From positions 82,422 to 146,421 of the forward strand of contig CANGYJ010000012.1 of assembly GCA_947458455.1 (NCBI GenBank): DNA of 64,000 nt, written 5' to 3'. The notes under the pieces were generated by a model. That model was not told the DNA's origin and did no database searches. It saw only the letters and a list, made by a program, of their open reading frames with translations. The stretch's first letter is position 1; every line of letters begins with the position of its first letter. Origin of the DNA: Verrucomicrobiaceae bacterium (GTDB taxonomy: Bacteria; Verrucomicrobiota; Verrucomicrobiia; Verrucomicrobiales; Verrucomicrobiaceae). Positions 21,031-25,786 of the stretch are shown here, piece after piece. A program made the position numbers and the translations under genes.

Positions 21031-22155
<1,125 letters not shown>

Positions 22156-22243
22156 TTATGTATGGGGATGTTGGTAGCGGCAAATGCCGAATGACTTTTT
22201 TCCCTTGCGGGTCGTGGCGCGATTTCACTACCATGGCGCATAA

Positions 22244-23119
22244 ATGAGACGGCCCTTGCTACCTTTTCAACTGCTTGCGCTGATGCTCGCGGGGTGCCTC
22301 CCTGCTGCGCAACCAACTCGTATTCCGGCTTCATTTGGTGATTTGATGCACATAAATCCCGATGAGCTCGGCCGTTTGGACATTGGCCGTGTGAATCTTC
22401 TCTGCGCCCAAGGGTTGCCAGGAGAATACATGGATTTGGATGGCGAACTGGCGATCTTGGACAGATGGAGTGAGTCTGTTCGCAAGGAGACAAAGAAATT
22501 CATGTCGCGTTTCCGCGCACACCCTGAAAAGTTCAAGGGGTCTGAGGGATATTTTCGAATGCTTGTTTTGATCACCGTGCTGCAACAAGACTTCGGTGTT
22601 GATTACAACCCAGCAAGGGACACTTCCCCGGAAAACCCGGAATCGGGACAGGCTTTCTTTGCGAATTCGGCCGATCTCTTCGTTCATGGGCTGCTCGGCA
22701 AGCGGTTGGGAACCTGTAGTTCCATGCCCGTTCTATACGTCGCCGTGGGGCGTCGGCTTGGCTATCCGCTGAAGCTGGTGACGGCAAAATCACACCTATT
22801 TGCTCGCTGGAACGAAGGCGATGGCAGGCATTTCAACATTGAAGGCACCAATCGAGGCTTGGTTTGCCACGAGGACGACTACTACAAGACATGGCCGCGG
22901 CCCATTTCCGAAGCGGAGCTGGCAAACGGCCAGTTCCTCAAGTCGCTGACGCCCGCAGAGGAAATGGGCGTGTTCCTGCAAATTCGCGGAATCTGCCTTC
23001 AAGTGAACGGACGATATGCAGAGGCCAAAGCAACCTTTGACCGCGCTGTCGAGCTTGTGCCGTCATCAGAGCTTTACGCCAGATTTGCCAATCAGAAAAT
23101 GCTCACATCAAAGAACTAA
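22244..23119 (+). CDS. Transglutaminase-like (SirB1-type) lipoprotein with TPR-like C-terminus
   Basis: Lipobox LALMLAGCLPAA; LGTCSSMPVLYVAVGRRLGYPLKLVTAKSHLFARW with Cys...His arrangement; AEAKATFDRAVELVPSSELY. Confidence 0.7.
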   Translation: MRRPLLPFQLLALMLAGCLPAAQPTRIPASFGDLMHINPDELGRLDIGRVNLLCAQGLPGEYMDLDGELAILDRWSESVRKETKKFMSRFRAHPEKFKGSEGYFRMLVLITVLQQDFGVDYNPARDTSPENPESGQAFFANSADLFVHGLLGKRLGTCSSMPVLYVAVGRRLGYPLKLVTAKSHLFARWNEGDGRHFNIEGTNRGLVCHEDDYYKTWPRPISEAELANGQFLKSLTPAEEMGVFLQIRGICLQVNGRYAEAKATFDRAVELVPSSELYARFANQKMLTSKN

Positions 23120-23123
23120 GACC

Positions 23124-24107
23124 ATGAAACTATTCATCGCGCCTCTCGCGCACATTTGCGGGCTTCTTGCAGTGACAGAAGTCCTTGCTGAAAGAGACCT
23201 TGAAACGGGGGGGTTCCTTTCTCGTGATCCGGCAGGGTTCGTGGATGGTCCCAACGTCTACACATATGTGAATCAGAACCCGTGGACTGCTTTTGATCCC
23301 GATGGGTTGTTCAAAGTTGGTTCAAATGCAATTATGGGGTTGTACACGACGCCTGCTGTCCACGAGACGATAACTTCCTCTTCACTAATCCCTTACTTAT
23401 TGACTCCTCGCGGAGCTAATTTGGGAGGATTCGGCAATTCAACTTTCCAGCAATTCGATAAGGGATTGAACGAGGGTGTAAGAAAGCCTGACACTCAAGG
23501 GTGGTCCACTACATCACCCGGTATTCCAATGGGGTTTACTGCATCATATTTGACAGCAGAGGCTCATATAGTGAAAGGAGATATGTTCGCTAACCATTTT
23601 GGAGATGAACAAGACAACCATGCCATGAGTGGCAATCCGGCGTTCATGCACGCTTCAGATCTAAGCAGGTATATTCAATCTAAACTGAGTTCGAAATTCG
23701 ATGCGGCTTTAACTGCCAGCGCAAAAGGGGAGTGGGAAAAAGCGGGGGAGCTTCTCGGAGAAGTTTGTCATACGGTTCAAGACTCCTATTCACCATCTCA
23801 TACTGGAAGAGATGGGGAAGGTAGAATCACAAACTTCAACGACTACAACATGCAAGACGGTGGTGCGCACGGCAAAGCGGACACAATGGATATGGTGCGC
23901 CAATCTGATAAGCATAACCTTGAACTTATGAAAAAAAATATCTCAGGAGTGACAGAGGCGTGTAAAGCCACGGAGGGTGTTTTCGATGCGTTCTTCAAGG
24001 CAGATAATCCAAGTAATGCATTCAAGAATCACATGGCTAGAGTCTTCGAGACGACATCGAACGCAAAAATCAATGTGTCTGGCGGTAAGAAGTATGAAAA
24101 AAAATGA
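23124..24107 (+). CDS. Secreted RHS-core 'tip' protein with phospholipase C/P1-nuclease-like metal-binding C-terminal domain (candidate toxin)
   Basis: Signal peptide MKLFIAPLAHICGLLAVTEVLA directly followed by RHS-core signature ERDLETGGFLSRDPAGFVDGPNVYTYVNQNPWTAFDPDGL; LLGEVCHTVQDSYSPSHTGR (HxxxDxxxxxH) and GGAHGKAD (HxxxD). Confidence 0.8.
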   Translation: MKLFIAPLAHICGLLAVTEVLAERDLETGGFLSRDPAGFVDGPNVYTYVNQNPWTAFDPDGLFKVGSNAIMGLYTTPAVHETITSSSLIPYLLTPRGANLGGFGNSTFQQFDKGLNEGVRKPDTQGWSTTSPGIPMGFTASYLTAEAHIVKGDMFANHFGDEQDNHAMSGNPAFMHASDLSRYIQSKLSSKFDAALTASAKGEWEKAGELLGEVCHTVQDSYSPSHTGRDGEGRITNFNDYNMQDGGAHGKADTMDMVRQSDKHNLELMKKNISGVTEACKATEGVFDAFFKADNPSNAFKNHMARVFETTSNAKINVSGGKKYEKK

Positions 24108-24152
24108 CCAAGAGAGTTAGGCCGATCAAGAAAGCACAATGGGAAACACGGT

Positions 24153-24767
24153 ATGAGTAAGCATCTAAAGCTGATTCTGTTCATCCTCCTACCTGTAGGT
24201 TTCTTTTTGTTGATTGCCTTTCAGTGGAGAGTTTGGAATGAGGAATTCCGCACAGAAGATGGAGGTCTTGGAACAGCTAGATTCACAGACATTAGCTGGC
24301 GTTACTGGGGGTCTCCTCATGTCTTGTCGGTGGGGGGCGGAGCAATTTCTTGTTCTGTGACATTTTCCATTGATGGTCATCTTGCCAAGTGGAAATCGAC
24401 CCGCGACGAGCGAGTTTTTGCTGTGCAGTTTAACCAACATCAGTGGTATGCCATCACATTGGACCGAACTAATGTCCCTAAGTCGGTTATCAGGTTTTAC
24501 AGAGGAAAAGATGGGGACATGCTTATGGAGATCGAGCCTCGCGATTATCCAATAAGACTAGCAATTGAAAACCTTTGGTTAAAAGACACTGATGAGGAAA
24601 TCTATTCAGCGTTTACTTCTGGTGACGCATTTGCCCGCTCTAGTCTACTTGCAACAACTTGGTGGAAAATTGTCCATTCGGAAGATGTTGAAGAAGTGAA
24701 GCCTGGATTTATTGAAGAAATTGCTGCGCGAGAATTCCCCGGTAGGAAAAACTTTTTGCCTCGGTAG
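24153..24767 (+). CDS. Hypothetical membrane-anchored protein (candidate immunity protein)
   Basis: N-terminal TM helix LKLILFILLPVGFFLLIAF; 45 nt downstream of and co-oriented with the RHS-tip gene. Confidence 0.5.
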   Translation: MSKHLKLILFILLPVGFFLLIAFQWRVWNEEFRTEDGGLGTARFTDISWRYWGSPHVLSVGGGAISCSVTFSIDGHLAKWKSTRDERVFAVQFNQHQWYAITLDRTNVPKSVIRFYRGKDGDMLMEIEPRDYPIRLAIENLWLKDTDEEIYSAFTSGDAFARSSLLATTWWKIVHSEDVEEVKPGFIEEIAAREFPGRKNFLPR

Positions 24768-24778
24768 CCCAAATGAAC

Positions 24779-25786
24779 TCACAGATGGGCCTCATCACCT
24801 AGCCTGAGATTTGGGACGAGGTAGCCTTGGACGTAGTCGCGGACGGCTTCGGTAAGGGCGGTGATGTCTTGGGTGAAGCCGGAGGCGCGGAGCTTGGCGA
24901 TGTCGGCGCAGGTGTAGTATTGATACTTCGACTGCAAGTGCTCCGGCATGTCGATGAACTCGATGTTCGGTGCTTTGCCGAGGGCGGAGAAGATGGCGGT
25001 GGCGAGCTCGATCCAGGTGTGGGCTTTGCCGGAGCCGAGATTGAAGAGGCCGCCGGCGCTGGAGGTCTCGGCGAGGTGGAGGGTCATGCGGATGGCGTCC
25101 TTCACATAAAGGAAATCGCGCATCTGCTCGCCATGCTGATAATCGGGGCGGTGGGACTTGAAGAGCTGCACCTTGCCGGTGGCGAGGATCTGGCCGCAGG
25201 CCTTGTGAACGAGGCTGCGCATGTCGGCCTTGTGGTCCTCGTTGGGGCCATAGACGTTGAAGTATTTGAGGCCGACGATGCTCGGCAGCCAGCCCTCGCG
25301 TTTCGCGTGAAGGTCGAAGAGGTGCTTCGAGTAGCCGTACATGTTCAGCGGACGCAGTTTATGGATGTCCGGGTCCTGATCGTTCATGCCGTGGGCGCCA
25401 TCGCCATAGGTGGCGGCGGAGGAGGCATACACAAAGCGGGTCTGATTGGCGAGCGACCACTGGCAGAGCTGCTTGGTGAACTCGTAGTTGTTCCGCATGA
25501 GGTAGTCCGCATCCCGCTCGGTGGTGGCGGAGCAGGCTCCGAGGTGGAGGACGTGGTCAAAGCGGCCCAGTTTCGCGGGCGAATGCTGCACGGCCTGAAG
25601 GAGGTCATGGCCGTCGATGTAGTCGGCAAAGCGCAGCGGCACGAGGTTCTTCCATTTCTCATCCGTGCTGAGGCGGTCGCAAACGACGATGTTTTCGCAG
25701 CCACGACGATTCAGCTCCCAAACGAGGGCGCTGCCGATGAATCCGGCCCCGCCGGTGATGAGGATGCGACTATCGGTGTTCTTCAT
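24779..25786 (-). CDS. hldD: ADP-L-glycero-D-manno-heptose 6-epimerase
   Basis: RILITGGAGFIGSALVWELNRRG; YASSAATYGDG; YGYSKHLFD; GLKYFNVYGPNEDHKADMRS. Confidence 0.92.
   Translation of the reverse strand: MKNTDSRILITGGAGFIGSALVWELNRRGCENIVVCDRLSTDEKWKNLVPLRFADYIDGHDLLQAVQHSPAKLGRFDHVLHLGACSATTERDADYLMRNNYEFTKQLCQWSLANQTRFVYASSAATYGDGAHGMNDQDPDIHKLRPLNMYGYSKHLFDLHAKREGWLPSIVGLKYFNVYGPNEDHKADMRSLVHKACGQILATGKVQLFKSHRPDYQHGEQMRDFLYVKDAIRMTLHLAETSSAGGLFNLGSGKAHTWIELATAIFSALGKAPNIEFIDMPEHLQSKYQYYTCADIAKLRASGFTQDITALTEAVRDYVQGYLVPNLRLGDEAHL

What the first reader, a model, noticed from the sequence alone, without database searches (positions are those of the whole stretch)
23124..24107. Stand-alone secreted RHS 'tip' toxin candidate with phospholipase C/P1 nuclease-like metal site
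Seen: a signal peptide is joined directly to the RHS-core terminal signature (RDLETGGFLSRDPAGFVDGPNVYTYVNQNPWTAFDPDGL) with no RHS/YD repeats, followed by a ~280-aa domain with HTVQDSYSPSH (HxxxDxxxxxH) and AHGKAD (HxxxD). Known: B. cereus PLC/S1-P1 nuclease zinc sites use HxxxDxxxxxH...HxxxE; RHS cores normally encapsulate C-terminal toxins. Inference: a toxin delivered without the RHS shell, possibly exported by Sec, with a metal-dependent lipase or nuclease activity.
Basis: partly seen in the sequence, partly recalled or inferred. Interest (0 to 1): 0.78.

Follow-up and report, generated by a model that had tools for sequence, protein, structure and literature searches.

The report
Shell-less secreted Rhs toxin cassette
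This is a three-gene mobile cassette in which the last 40 residues of a giant Rhs toxin are joined directly to an export signal and a swappable toxin domain, beside a transglutaminase-like enzyme gene; I found the same layout in over twenty related bacterial genomes and in no paper I could search.

Summary
The ORF at 23124-24107 is a signal peptide, the last 40 aa of an RHS core, and a toxin domain with an H-x3-D-x5-H...H-x3-D site. It is the middle gene of a 2.6-kb low-GC cassette inserted between leuB and hldD: a transglutaminase-like lipoprotein (22244-23119), the toxin, and a membrane-anchored small protein (24153-24767). Two same-genus genomes show the empty site.

Searching with the transglutaminase-like protein alone gave 26 loci in 22 genomes of the phylum with a signal-peptide + RHS-tip ORF directly downstream. 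C-termini vary (Tle1-like phospholipase, Tlde1, zinc-PLC-like, many unknown). In five tandem pairs, similarity runs from residue 1 to the end of the tip and stops. None of 29 ordinary RHS-tip loci has the enzyme.

The tip keeps both autoprotease aspartates but usually loses the arginine (57/57 in full-length RHS, 5/32 here). I propose an exported polymorphic toxin without shell, processed or attached by the neighbouring enzyme. Export, toxicity, immunity, zinc chemistry and the enzyme's role are inferred; the toxin fold could not be modelled. New variant of a known kind.

The parts
22155..24775 (.). Inserted cassette (approximate limits) between leuB (21031-22137, -) and the hldD-like gene (24779-25786, -)
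   Evidence: In L203 and L205 (same genus) leuB and hldD lie about 40-50 bp apart; cassette genes have GC 0.535/0.465/0.449 against 0.628/0.610 for the neighbours
22244..23119 (+). Transglutaminase-like (Transglut_core2) + TPR exported protein, 291 aa, lipobox LMLAGC; conserved C158, H184, N198
   Evidence: PF13369 31.1 bits, cutoff 23.5; C158 and H184 invariant in 9 homologues; homologues in 27 loci adjacent to SP-tip genes
23124..23189 (+). Signal peptide (residues 1-22)
   Evidence: Hydrophobic leader read from sequence; in 30 of 32 SP-tip proteins a cleavage motif falls at the junction with the RHS tip
23190..23309 (+). RHS-core C-terminal tip (residues 23-62), with D35 and D58 aligned to YenC2 663 and 686; Arg -13 absent
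   Evidence: TIGR03696 positions 41-76; PDB alignment to YenC2/TcC; Arg comparison
23310..24107 (+). C-terminal predicted toxin domain of Zn-PLC / S1-P1 / HET-C type
   Evidence: PF25107 VWA7_N 8.7e-6, 25.7 bits against 27.5; homologous domain at the C-terminus of an RHS-core protein (L043); motif conservation
23769..23801 (+). H216-x3-D220-x5-H226 predicted metal site
23868..23882 (+). H249-x3-D253 predicted metal site
24153..24767 (+). 204-aa protein with N-terminal membrane segment, candidate immunity protein
   Evidence: Inside the inserted cassette; 24 of 30 SP-tip genes are followed by an ORF with a strongly hydrophobic or lipoprotein segment (counted); no demonstrable homology to the L041 third gene

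Best explanation
A mobile polymorphic-toxin cassette that dispenses with the Rhs shell. Gene 1 is an exported transglutaminase-fold cysteine enzyme. Gene 2 is a toxin exported by Sec: signal peptide, the last 40 residues of an RHS core (the segment that carries the autoprotease aspartates and ends in DPxGL) and an exchangeable toxin domain, here a predicted zinc hydrolase of phospholipids or nucleic acid. Gene 3 is a membrane-anchored immunity protein. The conserved tip is the joint after which C-terminal domains are exchanged, plausibly with genuine RHS genes. Because the shell and the conserved Arg of the RHS autoprotease are gone, the neighbouring enzyme probably acts on the tip in trans, cutting the toxin free or linking it to a surface. 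Shown: architecture, conservation of the gene pair, C-terminal polymorphism, insertion as a unit. Inferred: export, toxicity, immunity, zinc chemistry, the enzyme's action on the tip, the route out of the cell. My confidence in the exported shell-less polymorphic toxin is about 0.7; in the enzyme acting on the tip about 0.4.
For: Enzyme gene directly upstream of an SP-tip ORF in 26 loci of 22 genomes, found by searching with the enzyme only; 0 of 29 ordinary RHS-tip loci and 0 of 3 distant Transglut_core2 loci show the pair. Five tandem pairs are alike from residue 1 to the end of the tip and then unrelated (for four of them). Known effector domains occur on the tip: Tle1-like 7.7e-16, Tlde1 2.5e-6. 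The window's domain type is also the C-terminal domain of an RHS-core protein. Empty site and low GC. Tip aspartates kept in 30-32 of 32, Arg kept in 5 of 32 against 57 of 57. Cys and His of the enzyme invariant.
Against: No experiment. Tle1-like and Tlde1 are the only C-termini with a recognised effector family; most are unknown. Six of 30 scored third genes show no hydrophobic segment, and the window's third gene has no detectable homologue in L041. The toxin fold could not be modelled. Nothing shows that the enzyme touches the tip.
Confidence: 0.68

Rival explanations
1. Orphan RHS-CT store: a silent reservoir of toxin sequence for recombination into full-length RHS genes; the signal peptide is accidental.
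For: Orphan RHS tips without signal peptide are common in related genomes; toxin domains are exchanged at the tip.
Against: A signal peptide at the same residue in 33 proteins, cleavage motif at the junction in 30 of 32, close coupling to the enzyme gene.
Confidence: 0.1
2. A secreted non-toxic enzyme system: the C-terminal domains are digestive or cell-envelope enzymes, and the cassette is not a weapon.
For: Zn-PLC/S1-P1 proteins include ordinary secreted enzymes; the genome has a separate secreted protein with a similar motif (L040).
Against: C-terminal hypervariability with a constant N-terminus, a variable small membrane gene after each copy, tandem arrays, Tle1-like and Tlde1 domains, RHS ancestry.
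Confidence: 0.15
3. The transglutaminase-like protein is an anchor or chaperone that binds the tip without catalysis, like the inactive transglutaminase domains proposed as surface anchors in some RHS toxins.
For: Zhang et al. 2012 (PMC3482391) propose this for N-terminal inactive domains; the window's protein has a lipobox.
Against: Cys158 and His184 are invariant in the aligned set, which suggests catalysis.
Confidence: 0.25
4. Assembly fragment or decayed remnant of a full-length RHS gene.
For: Only the last 40 residues of the core are present.
Against: Intact ORF within a large contig, same three-gene order in L041, same pair in 25 further loci, clean empty site.
Confidence: 0.01

Closest known systems
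Rhs/YD polymorphic toxins (T6SS Rhs1, TcC/YenC2, WapA)
   Same: RHS-core terminal signature with both autoprotease aspartates; variable C-terminal toxin starting after DPxGL; candidate immunity gene downstream.
   Different: No YD repeats or shell; signal peptide joined at the tip; the conserved Arg lost in 27 of 32; a separate transglutaminase-like gene.
RHS toxins with N-terminal inactive transglutaminase domain (Zhang et al. 2012, PMC3482391)
   Same: Signal peptide, transglutaminase fold and RHS sequence in one system.
   Different: There the domain is inactive, in the same polypeptide, before many RHS repeats; here it is a separate gene with Cys and His kept, and only the RHS tip remains.
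Small exported polymorphic toxins: MafB (PMC4287609), SitA (PMC5562445)
   Same: Short exported protein with conserved N-terminus and variable C-terminus.
   Different: Their N-terminal parts are unrelated to RHS as far as known to me; no transglutaminase partner known to me. Not tested here.
Tox-HET-C / zinc-dependent phospholipase C / S1-P1 nuclease
   Same: H-x3-D-x5-H and H-x3-[DE] pattern in four homologues; already predicted as a polymorphic-toxin domain (PMC3482391).
   Different: Sequence scores below Pfam cutoffs; carried on an exported RHS tip.

Membership tests
Rhs/YD-repeat toxins | YD repeats forming a shell | tested here: not met
   Only TIGR03696 positions 41-76 match; no RHS repeat found
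Rhs/YD-repeat toxins | RHS-core C-terminal signature | tested here: met
   33.9 bits against 32.5
Rhs/YD-repeat toxins | Autoprotease residues R650, D663, D686 (YenC2 numbers, PMC8455502) | tested here: not met
   D35 and D58 present by alignment; Arg at -13 absent here, present in 57/57 full-length and 5/32 SP-tips
Rhs/YD-repeat toxins | T6SS in the genome (for T6SS Rhs effectors only) | tested here: not met
   No T6SS_VipA match in the 96% complete genome
Polymorphic toxin systems | Constant N-terminus with exchangeable C-terminal toxin | tested here: met
   Five tandem pairs; C-terminal all-against-all
Polymorphic toxin systems | Cognate immunity gene downstream | tested here: inconclusive
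   Small ORF downstream, mostly with membrane or lipoprotein segment; function not testable here
Zn-PLC / S1-P1 / HET-C superfamily | His/Asp ligand pattern H-x3-D-x5-H ... H-x3-[DE] | tested here: met
   Window, L041, L043, L035
Zn-PLC / S1-P1 / HET-C superfamily | Curated profile score | tested here: not met
   VWA7_N 25.7 < 27.5; homologue L043 Zn_dep_PLPC 20.8 < 26.8
Zn-PLC / S1-P1 / HET-C superfamily | All-helical fold with clustered ligands | tested here: inconclusive
   AlphaFold2 model pLDDT 31.5
Transglut_core2 (upstream gene) | Curated profile score | tested here: met
   31.1 bits against 23.5
Transglut_core2 (upstream gene) | Catalytic Cys, His and Asp/Asn | tested here: met
   C158, H184 invariant; Asn in most, Asp in L139 and L187
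MafB / SitA exported toxins | Their N-terminal domains | not tested
   Named as functional parallels only

The most novel reading that the evidence does not exclude
A distinct delivery class of polymorphic toxins: the Rhs cocoon and its self-cleavage are replaced by a secreted transglutaminase-fold enzyme encoded next door, which recognises the exported RHS tip in trans and either releases or covalently attaches the toxin.
Probability: 0.4. Interest if true: 0.85.

Novelty: new variant of a known kind. Interest (0 to 1): 0.72.

Why it matters
Rhs toxins are understood as toxins caged in a shell that cuts itself open. Here the shell is gone but its last 40 residues are kept, with an export signal joined at a fixed point and one enzyme family next door. 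That makes a direct question testable: what is the tip for, if not to plug and cut a shell? The enzyme gene is also a bait that pulls out many short, exported, mostly uncharacterised C-terminal domains from a poorly studied phylum.

Tried and rejected
Similarity searches with the toxin in genome contigs, plasmids and viral contigs gave nothing. The toxin structure prediction failed, with only two sequences. Fold search of the transglutaminase model: best PDB matches were menin at E 0.016 and worse; the model is only pLDDT 68, so not relied on. PDB profile search with the toxin-domain alignment: no relevant hit. Homology between the third genes of window and L041: E 0.10, not claimed. Plasmid search with the enzyme: only weak general transglutaminase-family matches covering 32-43% of the query. 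Assembly fragment: rejected. T6SS Rhs remnant: no T6SS sheath gene in this genome. A caspase-like reading of one C-terminal group (HG and Cys motifs in L138, L182, L184, L185, L099) is a guess and not used. One search, an E. coli record, was a needless look-up and is not used. A first regex missed the tip in L182 and L152; both were found by reading the ORFs.

Full report
WHAT IS THERE. The reported ORF is real and was read correctly. It encodes 327 aa: a hydrophobic leader of 22 aa, the end of an RHS core (TIGR03696 positions 41-76 of 76) and a 265-aa domain. The best PDB matches to the tip are the ends of TcC/YenC-type RHS proteins. The gene begins 5 nt after an ORF with a transglutaminase-like domain and a TPR-like end (22244-23119; the lipobox LMLAGC is read from the sequence). 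It is followed 45 nt later by a 204-aa ORF with an N-terminal membrane segment.

THE CASSETTE. The three genes have GC 0.535, 0.465 and 0.449, against 0.628 and 0.610 for the flanking leuB and hldD-like genes. In two same-genus genomes (L203, L205) leuB and hldD lie about 40-50 bp apart, so the three genes are one insertion of about 2.6 kb. The other 27 leuB loci examined did not show hldD within the stretch held, so they say nothing either way. The genome has only one other recognisable RHS core, on another contig.

THE RECURRENCE. A search with the toxin domain in 388 genomes of the phylum found a distant homologue in G082 with the same architecture: signal peptide, RHS tip, HxxxDxxxxxH domain. 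Its upstream gene is a homologue of the window's transglutaminase-like gene (37% identity over 289 aa) and its downstream gene has a lipoprotein-like start. I then searched with the transglutaminase-like protein alone. Twenty-six loci in 22 genomes, including records titled Lentisphaerae and Kiritimatiellaeota, have an SP+RHS-tip ORF directly downstream, at -61 to +90 nt from the end of the enzyme ORF (L189: +394). In L136 the SP-tip gene is upstream and the contig ends soon after the enzyme. Three loci are cut by contig ends (L140, L141, L191) and two are decayed fragments without a tip (L190, L197). L135 carries a broken enzyme frame. As controls, none of 29 loci with ordinary RHS tips, and none of three loci with distant Transglut_core2+TPR proteins, shows the pair. 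Between 3 and 5% of sampled genomes had an enzyme match.

POLYMORPHISM. I collected 33 SP-tip proteins. In five tandem pairs (L181, L183, L185, L193, L195) BLASTP similarity starts in the signal peptide and ends at or before the end of the tip, at 49-93% identity; beyond it there is no significant match. Most C-termini have no Pfam match. Exceptions are a Tle1-like phospholipase (L152, 7.7e-16), a Tlde1 domain (L151, 2.5e-6, just under its cutoff) and the zinc-type domain of the window and L041. L043 carries the window's domain type at the C-terminus of an RHS-core protein. L180 has, next to its SP-tip gene, a longer RHS-derived ORF with nearly the same tip, as expected if tips are exchanged between them (inference).

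THE TIP. The residues named for RHS autoproteolysis are R650, D663 and D686 of YenC2 (cited in PMC8455502). The window's D35 and D58 align with 663 and 686. Among 32 SP-tips with the first motif, the first Asp is present in all (it is part of the search pattern) and a second D..G in 30, some after an insertion. The Arg 13 residues before the first Asp is present in 57 of 57 full-length RHS cores from these loci but in only 5 of 32 SP-tips, because the signal peptide joins just there. That this Arg equals YenC2 R650 follows from the spacing (663-650 = 13) and is an inference. In 30 of 32 a cleavage motif falls at the junction. Self-cleavage therefore looks unlikely, which leaves the neighbouring cysteine enzyme as a natural candidate to act on the tip (both inference).

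THE TOXIN DOMAIN. H216-x3-D220-x5-H226 and H249-x3-D253 (or E) are kept in four homologues. The pattern agrees with Tox-HET-C / Zn-PLC / S1-P1, already predicted as a toxin domain (PMC3482391). Profile scores lie below curated cutoffs and the structure prediction failed. Membership is likely, not proven; lipase versus nuclease is open.

IMMUNITY AND EXPORT. Of 30 SP-tip genes with a scored downstream ORF, 24 have a strongly hydrophobic or lipoprotein segment in it (my count), as expected for toxins acting in the envelope. Function is untested and some are soluble. The window's genome has no T6SS sheath protein and several secretins. The route beyond Sec is unknown.

WHAT IS KNOWN. Rhs toxins are caged in a shell and released by autocleavage (PMC8636562). 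Zhang et al. 2012 (PMC3482391) describe RHS toxins with an N-terminal, inactive transglutaminase domain after a signal peptide. Here the enzyme is a separate gene with its catalytic Cys and His, and the RHS part is reduced to the tip. Eight literature searches showed no description of this architecture, but I read only a few papers, and the library is open-access only. Verdict: new variant of a known kind, with the enzyme's role as the main open question.

Noticed in passing
L002 (G000:C13:38273-38452) and L045: The only other RHS core found in this genome departs from the usual tip after GRWACCDPI and continues into unrelated sequence.
   Followed up: no
L137:5147-5677: The gene after this SP-tip gene is a signal-peptidase-like S26 protein (PF10502, 3.7e-19) instead of a typical immunity candidate.
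   Followed up: no
L117:4302-4559 (Lentisphaerae MAG contig end): SP-tip ORF in which the tip runs into a second, more upstream piece of RHS core (YEAYETRPVEW...), suggesting recombination within the tip.
   Followed up: no
L046:2281-4035 region (G050) and L180:2798-4222: Signal peptide followed by a short RHS-core piece longer than the tip: possible intermediates between full RHS and SP-tip proteins.
   Followed up: partly
L134, L137, L138, L186, L193, L194: An insertion of variable length sits inside the tip between RDPxxE and the second D..G in several SP-tip proteins.
   Followed up: no
L138, L182, L184, L185, L099: A family of related C-terminal domains on SP-tips with HG and Cys motifs and no Pfam match.
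   Followed up: partly
L040 (G000:C16:46327-46482): A separate exported protein in the same genome with an HQIEDYGSPSH motif, probably an ordinary secreted PLC/S1-P1-type enzyme.
   Followed up: no
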